From the IMG/VR virus record IMGVR_UViG_3300038954_000019, positions 1 to 21,453 of that record: a DNA stretch of 21,453 bases; one strand, 5' to 3'. Both the position numbers and the translations under genes were made by a program. The notes under the pieces were generated by a model. That model was given only the letters and a program-made list of their open reading frames with translations, did no database searches and was not told the DNA's origin. The stretch is from a virus. Positions 1,940 to 21,451 of this stretch are shown in pieces (position 1 is the stretch's first letter; each line of letters begins with the position of its first letter).

Positions 1940-3535
1940 CTACTCGATGGGCTGCAAAAAATGTCCAGCCAGTTCCACAGATTCCGGCGGCGGCACAAAA
2001 AGCAAATTCAGCCCGGCCTTGCGCGGGATCGCCATCATGTGGAAATCGGCTGTCGGATCGTTGTTCCCGGTCACGGCATCAGAAAGCCACAGATGAGTGT
2101 GGACCGACAACGGCATTGCGCGACCGGTCGAAAAGCCACGATAGATCAATTCGCCGGTCTTTTTTTCGTAGATCCGCAGCCGGTTATTGGCCGTGACGTA
2201 CAAAAACCGCGAGTCGACGTACATCCAATGGATGTCCTCGAGCGGCGCTTTCGTATTTTCCCAGATTTGGGCGCCTTGCGTTCCGCCGGTCATCTCCCAA
2301 GAGGATCTCAGCCCGATGGCGCAAAGACGGGACGTGATCACCTGATCAGCGTGGGATCCTGGGCTTGCGGTCAGGACATAGACCCGATCCCTGTCGGCTT
2401 TAAGCTGCAGGATCCCCGGAGAGGAAAGCGACTCATCGTAGGTGGAGATCAGGATCGACCCGTACACGTCCATTATGTGCACACGGCCATTCTGTGTCCC
2501 TGTGATAACCCGATCTTCCGATATGGCCAGGGCGGTAAGGGGATCGGAATCGTCCGATCCCGCAAAACTGGAAGTGGACTCACCGGCAATATCAAAAACG
2601 TACACTGATTTGCTGTGCGCGATGAACACCCCGGCCCCATTGGAGTACATGTCAACAATGGGATCAATGGAAGAAACAGGTATCATGTAATCGGCAACTT
2701 CGGATCCGTCTGATGCATTGAGCTTCACTAGATTGAAACGATTACTTGCCGAGACCGTCTCAGCGATCCAGACGTGCAGACCATCACAACAGATCCCCTC
2801 GATTGTGCTATCTGCCGTGTAAGACCATTTTGATGCGAATCCACTGGCCGTTCTTGCTTCACAGACCTTTCCAGATCCATTGTGCAAATACACAAACATC
2901 CCATCAGTGCAGCCACCGGCCGGCGCGTTCGCAGCAACAAAACCCGAAACAGATGCCCATGGATACTGTATAACGGGATCTATCCTGATCGGCGTCGGAT
3001 CCGAAATGGTAGACAAATCGTCGATTGCAGCTTCTACGCTTTCGTAGGATCTAATCCATGTTCGATTGTCTACATATTCTCTGGTCGCAATCGTGACGCT
3101 CGGATCCGTGACAAGCGTGACATTTGACGTGTCGCTAAAAGTCATGTAGCATTCAAAATTGATCGGAACAGCTGCCCCGTCCGCAGAAGGGTCTGGCTTT
3201 TGTACTTCCGGTGTACTGCCTATTGCGAGCAAGGCTGTTGTCCCGTCGACCCCAGGTCCAAAAAGCCCCACTTCCCGGATCGTGAAGGGACCTTCTCCGG
3301 CGCTGACACTATTCAATGCGCGGATTGTATCGGATCCGTCCGGATACGTGTCGACCGCGTCGACGTCGTCGATATAGACCTGATTGACCAGATCTGTCCA
3401 CGTGGAATCTGGTGTGATGGGAGATCCACCGCCATCGCCGAGCGCGAGCTGCTGGAACGTCAACTTGTCGCCGCCACTTGGGATCGCTGCTAAAACGGCC
3501 TGTGCCTCATCTGTAAGTATCAGTTCGAATGACAT
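1940..3535 (-). CDS. Tail fibre: collar-fibre N-terminus with propeller-like C-terminus
   Basis: Protein of 531 residues starting at ATG 3535, which overlaps the stop of the preceding gpI gene (TGATG). A TTG one codon upstream is a weaker alternative. Residues 1-150 fit the phage tail-collar fibre N-terminal domain (DUF3751 type): an early LTDEAQAVLAA helix, then KLTFQQLALGDG, TIREVGLFG and a segment close to FECYMTFSDTSNVTL, the part that attaches a fibre to the baseplate. From about residue 190 onward the protein changes to repeated beta blades with motifs such as IEGICCDGLHVWIAE, GVFIAHSKSVYVFD, ALAISEDRVITGTQNG and DRVYVLTAS, as in WD40- or PQQ-like propellers. The tip is probably the receptor-binding part. 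Codons 20-31 contain the protospacer matched by spacer 2 of the mini-array (3445-3477). The propeller call is from repeat rhythm, not from a search. Confidence 0.88.
   Translation of the reverse strand: MSFELILTDEAQAVLAAIPSGGDKLTFQQLALGDGGGSPITPDSTWTDLVNQVYIDDVDAVDTYPDGSDTIRALNSVSAGEGPFTIREVGLFGPGVDGTTALLAIGSTPEVQKPDPSADGAAVPINFECYMTFSDTSNVTLVTDPSVTIATREYVDNRTWIRSYESVEAAIDDLSTISDPTPIRIDPVIQYPWASVSGFVAANAPAGGCTDGMFVYLHNGSGKVCEARTASGFASKWSYTADSTIEGICCDGLHVWIAETVSASNRFNLVKLNASDGSEVADYMIPVSSIDPIVDMYSNGAGVFIAHSKSVYVFDIAGESTSSFAGSDDSDPLTALAISEDRVITGTQNGRVHIMDVYGSILISTYDESLSSPGILQLKADRDRVYVLTASPGSHADQVITSRLCAIGLRSSWEMTGGTQGAQIWENTKAPLEDIHWMYVDSRFLYVTANNRLRIYEKKTGELIYRGFSTGRAMPLSVHTHLWLSDAVTGNNDPTADFHMMAIPRKAGLNLLFVPPPESVELAGHFLQPIE
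3445..3477 (-). other. Protospacer: exact 33-base match to spacer 2 of the mini-CRISPR array
   Basis: Bases 3445-3477 are identical, base for base, to 20527-20559, the spacer between the second and third CRISPR repeats. Identity stops at both ends precisely where the repeats begin (flanking bases 3444 and 3478 differ from 20526 and 20560). The segment encodes residues about 20-31 (SGGDKLTFQQLA) of the fibre protein. On the minus strand it is preceded by TCCCAA and begins GTGG, so an AAG straddles the edge, matching the known type I-E PAM if the repeat is counted as 29 and the spacer as 32 bases. Confidence 0.93.
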
Positions 3536-18618: not shown

Positions 18619-20448
18619 CTACGGACCCATCTGGATTTTTCCGCGCTTGCGAATCCGGCGAGAGCCCGAAGGCTGCTTCGCCTTTCCTTTTTGATCAAGA
18701 TCCAAGACTGGTGCCAAAATCTCTAACGCGGCTGTCGCGTAATTCCTCACATCTAGCGGCTCGTTGCGCTCTCGGATCTGAACCCATCGGCGCCGGCGGC
18801 GGCCGGCGACAGTTTTGATTTCGCGTTTTTCGGACGTCAACCCAAGGTAGTACGGGTGGTCATATCCGCTCTTCGGATCGCTCGGAAAATGACAGTACCC
18901 TGGCCCTGGCTTTCTGATCGCCAGCCGGTCGAATAGTAGATCCTTCAGCGAGTCGACACCTACCGGATAAGCGACTACACGATGGCGCCCATATTGCTTT
19001 GGCTTGCCTATGATCGGCCGGCCGAAGCCAGGAACGCCAAAGATCGGCCTTACCCCCCTGCGGATCCGCGCCTTACAGTATTTGTCGACCGTATCCGTGC
19101 GGTGCCCGCCACGGTCGATGCAGATCAGCCGTGCGATCAACTCCTGTCCATCGGCGCGTCTTACAGTTTGCCAGAGGAGCTCGTCGAGCTCTTGCCAGAT
19201 CTGCGGCTGCGACGTGTCGCCTGTCAGCACGCGATATCCAAGCCCCCAAGACTCACGACCTTGCCCCCAGCCTACCCACTCGGCTGCGATCCAGTGGTCT
19301 TGGACATCTACTCCACAGGTTACCACCTGTACCGCGTTTGGCGCCATGCTGGCCGAATACTCGGATCTGTTTTTGTCAAGATCGCCAGCTTCTACGTGCT
19401 CCGAGTCCTCTGTGGCCCACACGCGGCCCAGATCCAAGTTGATGAATTCCTGTAGGCCTCGCTTGTCCCGATCTCGGTTGATTTTGACCCACTTTTCTGC
19501 GAGATCTGCCCACCTTACCCACGGCGACAGGATGCACGACATCTGGTATCCGCGCTTGCGGCGCTCGGGATGCTCGGCTTTCCATTCGCCGGCCAGATCC
19601 ATGGCGTTTTTGTCTCGCTCCTCGATCCTTTCGCCGCAATGTTTGCACAAATAGTGCACGTCGTCGAAGTCGATCTCGCCTAAGGCGTTCTTGTAGACGA
19701 TCCCATCCCACTCAAGCACCTGAAGTGCCCCGCAGTGTGGGCATGGGACCCATCGTCTGCGCTGGTCTGTCTCTGCGAATCGCTCGCCGATCGGGCTGAG
19801 CCCTGCGATAGTGGGGGTCGACACTCCGATGATCTTCCTGTTGTAAAAATTGGCGGTCCGCTTCATCGCTTGGGCGATCGGATCCCCGTCGCGGCCGGTT
19901 TTCACCGGATACTTGTCGATTTCGTCAAGGATCAAGACACGGATCGACCTCGAGGCTAGCGTGGCGGCCGCATTCGCAGATCCGAACGCCAGGTATCCAC
20001 CAGGAAACATTTTGAGCTCGATCGTATTGCCCTTGTCCCTCTGGCTGTCGGTCAAGAGCCCCCGCAGCGCGGGGGTCTGCCTAAAGGTGGGGTCGATCCG
20101 CTCTTTCGAAAAGCTCTTTGCCGCATCTTGAGTCTCTCGGACGTACAGGATCGGCGCCGGGTCTTGATGGGCATGGTACCCGATCACGTTGAGGGCAAGC
20201 TCACTCTTGCCGACCTGCGAGGCCATTTGGAGCCACAGTTCTTCGATCGTCGGATCGCAAGCTGCGTCCAATATTTCGCGCATGTACGGGACCCGGTCTG
20301 TACGCCATGGTCCCCACTCGGCCGAGGTGCCGCGTGCGACAAACCGATGGAGATCAGCCCACTCTCCCCCGCTGAGATCGGGGCGGGGCTTCAGGATCGA
20401 TAGGAAGGATCTTGTCCACTCGCCTTCATTCATCCTCCTTGCCTCCAT
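18619..20448 (-). CDS. Terminase large subunit (GpA family)
   Basis: A 609-residue protein if ATG 20448 is used, 604 from ATG 20433; the first lies inside the last CRISPR repeat, the second directly touches an AAGGAGG, so the start is uncertain. Motifs of the ATPase: Walker A MASQVGKS (75-82), Walker B VLILDEID (171-178) and STP (210-212). A zinc-ribbon pair follows, CPHC (236-239) and CKHC (268-271), as in many GpA-type terminases. The nuclease part has GVDVQDHW (Asp381), CIDRGGH (Asp445) and LDVRNYATAALE near the end. It cuts concatemers and packages DNA through the portal. No small-subunit gene is seen next to it; the expected place is taken by the mini-array and tnpB. Confidence 0.95.
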   Translation of the reverse strand: MEARRMNEGEWTRSFLSILKPRPDLSGGEWADLHRFVARGTSAEWGPWRTDRVPYMREILDAACDPTIEELWLQMASQVGKSELALNVIGYHAHQDPAPILYVRETQDAAKSFSKERIDPTFRQTPALRGLLTDSQRDKGNTIELKMFPGGYLAFGSANAAATLASRSIRVLILDEIDKYPVKTGRDGDPIAQAMKRTANFYNRKIIGVSTPTIAGLSPIGERFAETDQRRRWVPCPHCGALQVLEWDGIVYKNALGEIDFDDVHYLCKHCGERIEERDKNAMDLAGEWKAEHPERRKRGYQMSCILSPWVRWADLAEKWVKINRDRDKRGLQEFINLDLGRVWATEDSEHVEAGDLDKNRSEYSASMAPNAVQVVTCGVDVQDHWIAAEWVGWGQGRESWGLGYRVLTGDTSQPQIWQELDELLWQTVRRADGQELIARLICIDRGGHRTDTVDKYCKARIRRGVRPIFGVPGFGRPIIGKPKQYGRHRVVAYPVGVDSLKDLLFDRLAIRKPGPGYCHFPSDPKSGYDHPYYLGLTSEKREIKTVAGRRRRRWVQIRERNEPLDVRNYATAALEILAPVLDLDQKGKAKQPSGSRRIRKRGKIQMGP

Positions 20449-20587
20449 GCGCGCGCGGGGCTGACTTGGGCCCGCCGAAAGCCGCCAGGGGCTAGCAACT
20501 CGCCTCCATGCGCGCGCGGGGCTGACCGAGCTGCTGGAACGTCAACTTGTCGCCGCCACCTCGCCTCCATGCGCGCGCGGGGCTGAC
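20438..20587 (-). CRISPR. Mini-CRISPR array: three 28-bp repeats, two 33-bp spacers
   Basis: Repeats lie at 20438-20465, 20499-20526 and 20560-20587, with an exact 61-bp period. Repeats 2 and 3 are identical; repeat 1 has one change (20440, T instead of C on the plus strand). Spacers are 20466-20498 and 20527-20559. Read on the minus strand the repeat starts GTCAGCCCCGCGCGCGC and ends ATGGAGGCGAG, similar in layout to type I-E repeats (GT..., CCCCGCGC core), and 28+33 equals the I-E period of 29+32. The altered repeat at the terminase end has its change near its 3' end on this strand, as expected for a terminal repeat, so the leader would lie at 20588-20671. Folding does not settle the direction: the plus-sense RNA pairs GCCUC with GGGGC, while the minus-sense RNA has a mismatch there. 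Spacer 2 matches 3445-3477 exactly; spacer 1 has no match that I found in the window. No cas adaptation or Cascade gene is present. Confidence 0.88.
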
Positions 20588-20671
20588 CCTGCGACGCATT
20601 GTCACACCCAGTTTGCGCATAGTCCGTGCAGTTTTCACCACACACACCAGGACGCCTGGTGGTTTTTCGTA
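20588..20671. other. Gap between tnpB and the array: presumed leader
   Basis: This 84-base segment holds no gene. If the array is read on the minus strand it is the leader. It carries the hairpin at 20645-20661 and, closer to the first repeat, a mixed-composition stretch without a convincing -35/-10 pair. It is short for a CRISPR leader. It could also be the right end of a TnpB-type element, whose guide-RNA scaffold usually overlaps the end of tnpB. Confidence 0.4.
20645..20667 (+). terminator. Hairpin with T-run, plus-strand terminator or element end
   Basis: CACCAGG (20645-20651) and CCTGGTG (20655-20661) form a perfect 7-bp stem around an ACG loop, followed on the plus strand by GTTTTT. 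This is the form of an intrinsic terminator for plus-strand transcription, although no plus-strand gene is seen. It starts 10 bases beyond the tnpB stop, so it might instead be the subterminal palindrome of an IS200/IS605-type right end or part of a guide-RNA scaffold. Confidence 0.55.
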
Positions 20672-21451
20672 TTATCCAACATCTCTCAACCCTGTTGCCG
20701 CAGCCAAGATCACCATCGCAGCATTCCTGTCTCTGTCACACTCCCATCCGCAATGCGAACATCGATATTTCCGATCGCCTAGGCCCATCTTTTGCTGTGC
20801 GCCGCAGCTAGCGCACGTCTGCGTCGGCTTGATCTTGCGAGTATCCACCTCCACGAATTCAATCCCAGCCTCTTTGCATTTTGCCCGACACATTTGCAAA
20901 AGCAGTCCAGGTGCGCTGTCCAAAATCGAACGATTTAGGCCAGCTTTTTGCTTGACGTTCTTACCCGGCATTTTTTCGCTTCCTTTGGCCGTCGCAGTCA
21001 TATTTCGCACCTGCAGCTTCTCGGTACACAGCACAGAAGCCCTTTTAACAAGATCGCAGGATACCTGATGCACAAAGTTCCGTCTGATGTCCTGGATTTT
21101 ACGATCAAGACGTTGTAGCTTCCGCAATACCTTGTGCCAATTCCTCGATCCCTTCTGCTTTCGTGCAAGGCGGCGCTGCAACGCAGCCTTTTGCTCTTGG
21201 TATTTTGGGGCGTGACGAGGATTTTCGACATGCTCGCCGGTGTGTAGCGTCAAGTATTTACTGGTCCCCCAATCAAAAGCAATCGCTTTGTTACCATGCT
21301 GGCGATCATCGTCGACCCGCATGCCGTCGCATCTCGCGCATGCGCGAATTGCAACCGCGTTTTTGCGCGAGTCCGCGCAGACGAAAAGTCCACGCATGGC
21401 GGTACGCCCGCCATTTTTTGCAAAAAAAAAGCCCCGCAGGGTGACATGCAC
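20672..21451 (-). CDS. tnpB: TnpB/OrfB-family RuvC nuclease, N-terminus missing or beyond window
   Basis: Up to 259 residues from the window edge to TAA 20674. Key residues of the RuvC-like core are all present: Asp60 in AIAFDWGTSKYLTLH, Glu144 in LCTEKLQVRNM, a zinc ribbon Cys213/216 and Cys231/234 (TCASCG, RCSHCG), and DRDRNAA at 239-245. Between them lies the arginine/lysine-rich helical stretch typical of OrfB_IS605 (KAALQRRLARKQKGSRNW). Full TnpB proteins are near 400 residues, with about 170-190 before the first Asp; here only 59 are visible and they do not look like the normal WED/REC part. The gene may continue past the edge, or be 5'-truncated. No TnpA gene is visible. TnpB proteins are RNA-guided DNA nucleases; Cas12 effectors descend from them. 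GATC content is lower than in the phage genes, which hints at separate origin. Confidence 0.82.
   Translation of the reverse strand: MHVTLRGFFFAKNGGRTAMRGLFVCADSRKNAVAIRACARCDGMRVDDDRQHGNKAIAFDWGTSKYLTLHTGEHVENPRHAPKYQEQKAALQRRLARKQKGSRNWHKVLRKLQRLDRKIQDIRRNFVHQVSCDLVKRASVLCTEKLQVRNMTATAKGSEKMPGKNVKQKAGLNRSILDSAPGLLLQMCRAKCKEAGIEFVEVDTRKIKPTQTCASCGAQQKMGLGDRKYRCSHCGWECDRDRNAAMVILAAATGLRDVG
21422..21437 (-). terminator. Possible 3' half of a minus-strand terminator at the window edge
   Basis: On the minus strand GCGGGGC (21437-21431) is followed at once by nine T (21430-21422), the usual end of an intrinsic terminator. The matching 5' arm would have to lie at or beyond position 21453, so it cannot be seen. 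If it is real, transcription of an upstream gene ends here and the first residues of the tnpB frame (GFFFAK) are terminator sequence, which would move the tnpB start to about 21397 or later. Confidence 0.35.

What the first reader, a model, noticed from the sequence alone, without database searches (positions are those of the whole stretch)
3445..3480. Self-protospacer carries an AAG at its edge, the canonical type I-E PAM, and belongs to the leader-proximal spacer
Seen: on the minus strand the protospacer is preceded by CAA and starts with G; taken as 29-bp repeat plus 32-bp spacer this gives AAG-protospacer, and the array's repeat-adjacent base is that G. Known: I-E systems use AAG and derive the last repeat base from it. 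The degenerate repeat is at the terminase end, so this spacer is next to the presumed leader and is the newest. Inference: host Cas1-Cas2 added a fragment from this phage or a near-identical sister, after the array was already on the phage. Against: the other spacer has T, not G, at the same position.
Basis: partly seen in the sequence, partly recalled or inferred. Interest (0 to 1): 0.75.

Follow-up and report, generated by a model that had tools for sequence, protein, structure and literature searches.

The report
Phage CRISPR aimed at its own tail
A bacterial virus carries a small CRISPR array next to the remains of a TnpB/Cas12-like nuclease gene, and its newest-looking spacer exactly matches the virus's own tail-fibre gene, while a nearly identical sister virus has the intact nuclease but not that self-aimed spacer; this looks like a CRISPR system that turned on its carrier and was switched off.

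Summary
Window 20527-20559 (minus strand) is a 33-nt spacer identical, 33/33, to 3445-3477 in the phage's own tail-fibre gene; the longest chance repeat elsewhere is 15 nt. The flank is CCCAA-G. A sister contig, L004 (3 differences in about 2.95 kb outside the array and one deletion), carries the same array without this spacer: [S2][S3][S4] against [Sself][S2] here. That fits leader-end gain in the window plus loss of S3-S4.

The array lies directly downstream of a TnpB/Cas12-family gene, between terS and terL. L004 encodes a full 435-aa effector (RuvC D-E-D, zinc ribbon). In the window, 741 bp including its ribosome site, start codon and about 218 residues are gone. So the genome with the self-spacer has no intact effector, and vice versa.

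Best reading: a phage-borne type V-U-like system whose array picked up its carrier's (or a sister's) DNA, tolerated because the effector is broken. Type I-E traits suggest spacers supplied in trans by a host I-E adaptation complex, but the repeat lacks the I-E hairpin and no host was found. Viral TnpB-plus-array loci are known; the self-spacer paired with effector loss is unusual.

The parts
3445..3477 (-). Self-protospacer, 33 nt, in the N-terminal part of the tail-fibre gene (about 20 codons from the start; sense strand = spacer strand)
   Evidence: 33/33 identity to 20527-20559
3478..3480 (-). 5' flank of the protospacer, CAA on the minus strand (PAM-side candidate)
   Evidence: Sequence
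1940..3535 (-). Tail-collar fibre protein gene, target of the self-spacer (ATG at 3535; the ORF list starts it at TTG 3538)
   Evidence: Pfam Phage_tail_fib 7e-26; PHROG tail fibre
20438..20465 (-). CRISPR repeat 3 (terminal, 27/28, GGCAAG); overlaps the terL translation start region
20466..20498 (-). Spacer S2 (TTGCTAGCCCCTGGCGGCTTTCGGCGGGCCCAA), shared with L004 where it is the first spacer
20499..20526 (-). CRISPR repeat 2
20527..20559 (-). Self-spacer, leader-proximal
   Evidence: absent from L004
20560..20587 (-). CRISPR repeat 1 (GTCAGCCCCGCGCGCGCATGGAGGCGAG)
20588..20671 (-). 84-nt leader between effector stop and first repeat; the L004 version plus repeat 1 folds stably (z -3.25), anti-repeat pairing not significant
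   Evidence: one difference from L004 at window 20662
20672..21326 (-). Remaining C-terminal part of the TnpB/Cas12-like effector gene (RuvC plus zinc ribbon), homologous to L004 2483-3137
   Evidence: Pfam OrfB_IS605 4e-19, Cas12f1-like_TNB 3e-16; PADLOC Cas12f/Cas12u4; alignment to L004
21326..21327 (.). Deletion junction: 741 bp present in L004 (1742-2482), holding the effector ribosome site, start codon and N-terminal half, is missing
   Evidence: the contig ends exactly 127 nt beyond this point
18619..20433 (-). Terminase large subunit (terL); likely start ATG 20433 with AAGGAGG supplied by the terminal repeat
   Evidence: Pfam GpA_ATPase 1.5e-79; sequence; homologues align from residue 2-6

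Best explanation
A phage (late-gene fragment: terL, portal, capsid, tail sheath, tail fibre) carries a compact type V-U-like CRISPR locus between terS and terL: a TnpB-family effector of 435 aa followed on the same strand by a short array. The array is live on a recent time scale, because two near-identical strains differ in it. In the window strain the spacer beside the leader is an exact copy of the phage's own tail-fibre gene. I infer that an adaptation complex acting in trans, most simply the host's Cas1-Cas2 (I-E-like by period and flank), inserted a fragment of this phage or a close sister. With an intact effector this would direct cutting of, or binding to, the carrier's own tail-fibre gene. 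The genome that bears the self-spacer has lost the start and N-terminal half of its effector, so it cannot self-target unless an effector is supplied in trans. Shown: self-match, array difference, effector deletion, gene order, effector family. Inferred: RNA-guided use of the array by this effector, leader-end gain, trans adaptation, and that effector loss permitted the self-spacer.
For: 33/33 self-match against a longest background repeat of 15 nt. The sister contig L004 differs at 3 positions in about 2.95 kb, yet has spacers [S2][S3][S4] and no self-spacer. L004 encodes a full effector with invariant D236, E320, D417 and CxxC...CxxC, scoring over the NCBIfam guided_TnpB cut-off (190.6 against 100), nearest solved sequence RdCas12n (2.6e-29), with a model matching TnpB (Z 22) and Cas12f (Z 19) over the whole length. 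The window lacks 741 bp, including its ribosome site and start. Other viral contigs have the same layout, effector then array on the same strand: L021/L022/L036, L023, L035, L037-L039. None of the spacers tested in four of those records matches elsewhere in its own record, so a self-spacer is unusual here. No tnpA is seen beside the gene and no canonical right end follows it. I-E-like period and half-repeat.
Against: Only one lineage (two contigs), so co-inheritance of effector and array is not tested by independent examples. Leader-repeat pairing is not better than in shuffled leaders (p about 0.06 and 0.31). The deletion lies 127 nt from the contig end and could be an assembly or minority variant. 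Gain of Sself in the window and loss from L004 are equally parsimonious. One protospacer cannot fix a PAM. The effector branch is long and falls among ordinary IS605 TnpBs, so its use of the array is inference.
Confidence: 0.55

Rival explanations
1. A virus-borne mini-array that exploits the host's type I-E system: host Cas1-Cas2 fills it and host Cascade-Cas3 uses it against competing phages; the TnpB gene beside it is a bystander.
For: 61-bp period, half-repeat GTCAGCCCCGCGC identical to real I-E repeats, AAG flank, precedent of virus-borne mini-arrays aimed at related viruses (PMC6858448, PMC11656645).
Against: Repeat lacks the 3' stem arm and folds weakly; this repeat was not found in any array of 84,980 species genomes by the pattern used; mini-arrays described so far have host-identical repeats and avoid self-targeting by mutated targets (PMC6858448), whereas the target here is intact; several unrelated viral loci place an array directly behind a TnpB-like gene.
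Confidence: 0.22
2. Assembly artefact or strain mixture: array, deletion and tail-fibre gene come from different coexisting strains and were joined into one contig.
For: Metagenomic virus record, linear fragment; the deletion junction lies exactly 127 nt from the contig end, the largest k of a common metaSPAdes setting (own knowledge), so the contig probably starts at a branch of the assembly graph.
Against: A graph branch means reads support the junction; 127-mers span more than two repeat-spacer units, so array order should be reliable; L004 is nearly identical, so any strain mixing would be between close sisters and the target would still belong to the same population.
Confidence: 0.13
3. 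Self-regulation: the spacer directs a nuclease-weak TnpB/Cas12-like protein to the start of the tail-fibre gene to tune its expression, as phage TldR proteins and Cas12m do elsewhere.
For: The target is about 60 nt into the coding sequence of a single gene; phage-encoded TldR (PMC13418256) and binding-only Cas12m (PMC11013384) are precedents.
Against: The catalytic triad is intact in L004; the effector is truncated in the genome that has the spacer; the sister lacks the spacer; the spacer lies in a fast-changing array.
Confidence: 0.06
4. The locus is an ordinary IS605-type TnpB gene beside an unrelated short tandem repeat.
For: The effector falls in a clade of IS605 TnpBs.
Against: No tnpA, no right end with GTTCAT; repeats are evenly spaced with unique, strain-variable inserts, one matching a gene exactly.
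Confidence: 0.04

Closest known systems
Type V-U systems (TnpB-derived effector plus array), including V-N/V-U4 (Cas12n)
   Same: Compact RuvC/zinc-ribbon effector of TnpB descent, adjacent array on the same strand, no Cas1 seen; the AAG flank fits the Cas12n AAN PAM if the repeat is counted as 29 nt (PMC11641405); nearest solved sequence is RdCas12n
   Different: Scores below the c2c8 cut-off; sits among IS605 TnpBs, not with the other array-bearing viral proteins; array is I-E-like; self-spacer present; effector partly deleted in the spacer-bearing genome
Virus-encoded CRISPR and mini-CRISPR arrays (PMC6858448, PMC11656645, PMC12607003)
   Same: Short virus-borne array with spacer turnover between near-identical viruses, at least one spacer against a phage gene, TnpB-like genes near viral arrays
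   Different: In the archaeal cases the carrier's own target is mutated to avoid self-targeting; here the target is intact and the effector is broken instead
Type I-E CRISPR arrays
   Same: 28-29 + 32-33 bp period, GTCAGCCCCGCGC half-repeat, AAG flank, leader-end polarity
   Different: No palindromic stem, no cas genes seen, a TnpB-like effector alongside
TldR (phage-encoded nuclease-dead TnpB regulators)
   Same: TnpB relative carried by a phage
   Different: Catalytic residues intact in L004, guide comes from an array, target is a phage gene

Membership tests
CRISPR array (any type) | Near-identical repeats at regular spacing with unique spacers | tested here: met
   28/28, 28/28, 27/28 at 61-bp spacing; same in L004 with 4 repeats
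CRISPR array (any type) | Spacer turnover between related strains | tested here: met
   [Sself][S2] against [S2][S3][S4] at 3 differences in about 2.95 kb
Type V-U (TnpB-derived effector with array) | TnpB/Cas12 fold with RuvC D-E-D and zinc ribbon | tested here: met
   In L004; only the C-terminal part remains in the window
Type V-U (TnpB-derived effector with array) | Array adjacent to the effector gene, same strand | tested here: met
   84-nt gap in window and L004
Type V-U (TnpB-derived effector with array) | tracrRNA or anti-repeat | tested here: inconclusive
   Leader plus repeat fold z -3.25 but pairing p 0.06 / 0.31
Type V-U (TnpB-derived effector with array) | Array RNA guides the effector | not testable with these tools
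   Needs RNA and protein experiments
V-N / Cas12n | Groups with Cas12n rather than with TnpB | tested here: inconclusive
   RdCas12n is the best PDB sequence match, but also for the IS605 TnpB L014; Cas12n not in the tree
V-N / Cas12n | 5'-AAN PAM | tested here: inconclusive
   One protospacer; AAG only if the repeat is counted as 29 nt
V-U2 / c2c8 | NCBIfam V_cas_c2c8 cut-off | tested here: not met
   100.5 against 350 bits
Type I-E | Repeat with a G+C-rich stem-loop for Cas6e | tested here: not met
   3' arm missing; -7.4 against -14.9 kcal/mol
Type I-E | 61-bp period and AAG-flanked prespacer | tested here: met
   AAG background about 1.5-2%
Type I-E | Cascade, Cas3 and Cas1-Cas2 present | tested here: inconclusive
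   No Cas1 in this record or in L004's, both fragments; Cascade and Cas3 not searched; host unknown
IS605 element | tnpA nearby and canonical right end | tested here: not met
   No tnpA among the ORFs of L004; the GTTCAT right end seen in relatives is absent
Virus-borne mini-array for interviral conflict | Carrier's own target mutated so that only rivals are hit | tested here: not met
   Own target 33/33 with flank intact

The most novel reading that the evidence does not exclude
A phage-borne TnpB-derived CRISPR system draws its spacers in trans from a host type I-E adaptation complex, and the two sister genomes record an autoimmune event: gain of a spacer against the phage's own tail fibre resolved by deletion of the effector rather than of the target or the spacer.
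Probability: 0.3. Interest if true: 0.8.

Novelty: new variant of a known kind. Interest (0 to 1): 0.62.

Why it matters
Compact TnpB-derived CRISPR systems in viruses lack their own spacer-insertion genes, and how they gain spacers is open. Two near-identical phage strains that differ by one new spacer and by an effector deletion catch spacer turnover in the act. They suggest an outside (I-E-like) supplier of spacers, and show what may happen when such an array copies its carrier. If the pairing holds in more strains it gives a natural autoimmunity experiment for viral CRISPR and a starting point for finding the missing adaptation partner. L035, a different virus with a TnpB-like gene and a 61-bp-period I-E-like array, hints that the pairing with I-E-type arrays is not unique.

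Tried and rejected
Host search by repeat: 84,980 species genomes scanned for two GTCAGCCCCGCGC half-repeats at array spacing; only real actinobacterial I-E arrays, one Roseiflexus array and one Sandaracinus tandem repeat, none with the phage repeat. Host search by terL: none in the five genomes behind those loci; in 282 genomes of the Sandaracinus phylum only 32-40% matches. Close relatives of terL or tail fibre in viral contigs: none besides L004. Spacer S2, the protospacer core and the upstream 30-mer elsewhere in viral contigs: no further hits. S3, S4: compared only with the window and L004, no match. Anti-repeat/tracrRNA in the leader: looked convincing in the minimum-energy fold but failed shuffle tests; the first leader hairpin also resembles a terminator for the opposite strand. 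Rfam: nothing at E up to 1 in L004. First profile for distant effectors (A1) could not be used; A2 worked. Altae-Tran 2023 (PMC10691335) is not held. Effector-like gene near the actinobacterial I-E arrays: none. In the fold search no family was excluded merely for being absent from the list.

Full report
OBSERVATION. The window is a whole virus record, a linear fragment of 21,453 bases, with a terL-to-tail-fibre late module on the minus strand. At 20438-20587 there are three 28-nt repeats, GTCAGCCCCGCGCGCGCATGGAGGCGAG on the minus strand, at 61-bp spacing with two 33-nt inserts; the copy beside terL has one change. The insert next to the other end, 20527-20559, equals 3445-3477 at 33 of 33 positions, and the match stops exactly at the repeat borders. 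The next longest exact repeat outside the array is 15 nt. Counted as 29+32 this gives an AAG edge; counted as 28+33 the flank is CAA. AAG occurs at about 1.5-2% of positions, so one case is mild evidence at best. The base after the 28-nt repeat is G, T, G, T over the four known spacers.

SISTER PHAGE. A scan of viral contigs for the repeat found one other contig, IMGVR_UViG_3300037284_000017 (L003/L004, 5,585 bp), and the effector scan found the same one. Outside the array and one deletion it differs from the window at 3 positions in about 2.95 kb (2,181 + 767 aligned bases compared). Its array has four repeats and three spacers, S2-S3-S4; S2 is the window's second spacer, and the self-spacer is absent. 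So the window array is [Sself][S2][end repeat] and the sister's is [S2][S3][S4][end repeat]. Gain of Sself at the leader end plus loss of S3-S4 explains this; loss of Sself from L004 plus loss of S3-S4 from the window is equally parsimonious, and only the usual leader-end polarity favours gain.

WHAT SITS NEXT TO THE ARRAY. Upstream of the array, on the same strand and 84 nt away, is a TnpB/Cas12-family gene (Pfam OrfB_IS605 and Cas12f1-like_TNB). In L004 it is complete: a likely start GTG at 1830 after GGGAGGT, 435 aa, between terS (phrog_57) and terL. It scores 190.6 bits against a cut-off of 100 for guided_TnpB and matches PADLOC Cas12f and Cas12u4. Its best solved sequence is 9j09, RdCas12n. 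The acidic triad D236, E320, D417 and the zinc-ribbon cysteines are invariant in the alignment with five relatives. The AlphaFold model (mean pLDDT 79.5, pTM 0.48) matches TnpB (8h1j, Z 22.0, 341 residues) and Cas12f (8dzj, Z 19.2) over the whole chain, though with large rmsd (10-11 A), probably because the lobes are placed differently. No tnpA lies nearby, and the right end with GTTCAT seen behind canonical relatives is missing.

EFFECTOR DELETION. In the window 741 bp of L004 (1742-2482) are missing, which removes the ribosome site, the start codon and about 218 residues. The surviving ORF keeps RuvC and zinc ribbon only. The contig ends exactly 127 nt beyond the junction. From my own knowledge, 127 is the largest k of a standard metaSPAdes run, so the contig probably begins at a graph branch where the intact and deleted versions diverge; I take this as a sign that both coexist, not as proof. 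The correlation is then: self-spacer with broken effector, intact effector without self-spacer. It rests on one pair of genomes.

IS THE EFFECTOR-ARRAY PAIR REAL? Among 25 viral loci with related proteins, L021/L022/L036, L023, L035 and L037-L039 have arrays directly behind the gene on the same strand, with quite different repeats. On a tree, array carriers are not one clade: at least three changes are forced by well-supported branches, and the L004 protein stands on a long branch within an IS605 TnpB clade. This agrees with the published view that type V systems arose many times from TnpB (PMC12669027) and with TnpB-like genes beside viral arrays in landfill phages (PMC12607003). The leader plus first repeat of L004 folds better than shuffles (z -3.25), but the pairing of leader with repeat does not beat shuffled leaders, so I do not claim a tracrRNA.

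TYPE I-E TRAITS. Real I-E arrays of Nocardiopsis, Actinomyces, Actinomadura and Actinocorallia carry the same first 13 bases and period. The phage repeat aligns to the Nocardiopsis repeat with a 4-nt gap where the second stem arm would be and folds weakly (-7.4 against -14.9 kcal/mol). So it could be a target for I-E-like integration but looks unfit for Cas6e processing. No Cas1 was found in this record, in L004 or in four relatives' records, all possibly fragments. L035, a separate virus with a TnpB-like gene, also has a 61-bp-period array with an I-E-like repeat. AAG also matches the Cas12n PAM AAN (PMC11641405), so the flank does not tell I-E acquisition from V-N-like targeting.

SELF-TARGETING AS A RARITY. 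None of the spacers extracted from four relatives' records (17 tested, incomplete for two arrays) matches elsewhere in its own record. In archaeal viruses with mini-arrays the carrier's own target is mutated (PMC6858448). In cells, disabling cas genes is a known way out of self-targeting (PMC6990116). Here the target is intact and the effector is the broken part, which on a phage I have not found described in the held library; the search was limited.

CONCLUSION. Most likely this is a phage-borne type V-U-like CRISPR locus with recent spacer turnover, filled in trans, whose self-spacer is tolerated because the effector is gone (0.55). The I-E mini-array reading remains at about 0.22, strain mixture or artefact at 0.13. 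Function, processing and host are untested.

Noticed in passing
L004 1713-1742 and 1777-1806: Two identical 30-nt copies of GTTGCAATTCGCGCATGCGCGAGATGCGAG, 34 nt apart, upstream of the effector start, with a 14-bp palindrome inside; could be a one-spacer second mini-array or an operator. Only one copy remains in the window, at the deletion junction.
   Followed up: partly
window 20433-20465: The terminal repeat's changed base (GGCAAG) helps form AAGGAGG just before the likely terL start ATG 20433, so the end repeat may serve as terL's ribosome site.
   Followed up: no
window 1-21453: GATC is about fourfold over-represented (325 against 79 expected); may be a clue to the host or to a modification system.
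   Followed up: no
L021 3735+, L022 3735+, L036 3735+, L023 2103+, L037-L039 4123+: TnpB-like genes in other viral contigs followed on the same strand by CRISPR arrays; in L021 and L023 the leader carries a shared CCTTTCA that could pair with TGAAAGG of the repeat.
   Followed up: partly
L035 4046-4440: Array of about seven 29-nt repeats at 61-bp period with an I-E-like repeat (GACTTACCCACGTGCGCGGGGGAGTTTGG) directly behind a TnpB-like gene in an unrelated virus record.
   Followed up: partly
L019 3832-5448: Terminase-like ORF that seems interrupted by an intein-like stretch (starting CLTLATAVETD, ending VHHN) before SGKTT.
   Followed up: no
L004 3147-3165: Hairpin just after the effector stop reads as an intrinsic terminator for the opposite strand.
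   Followed up: no
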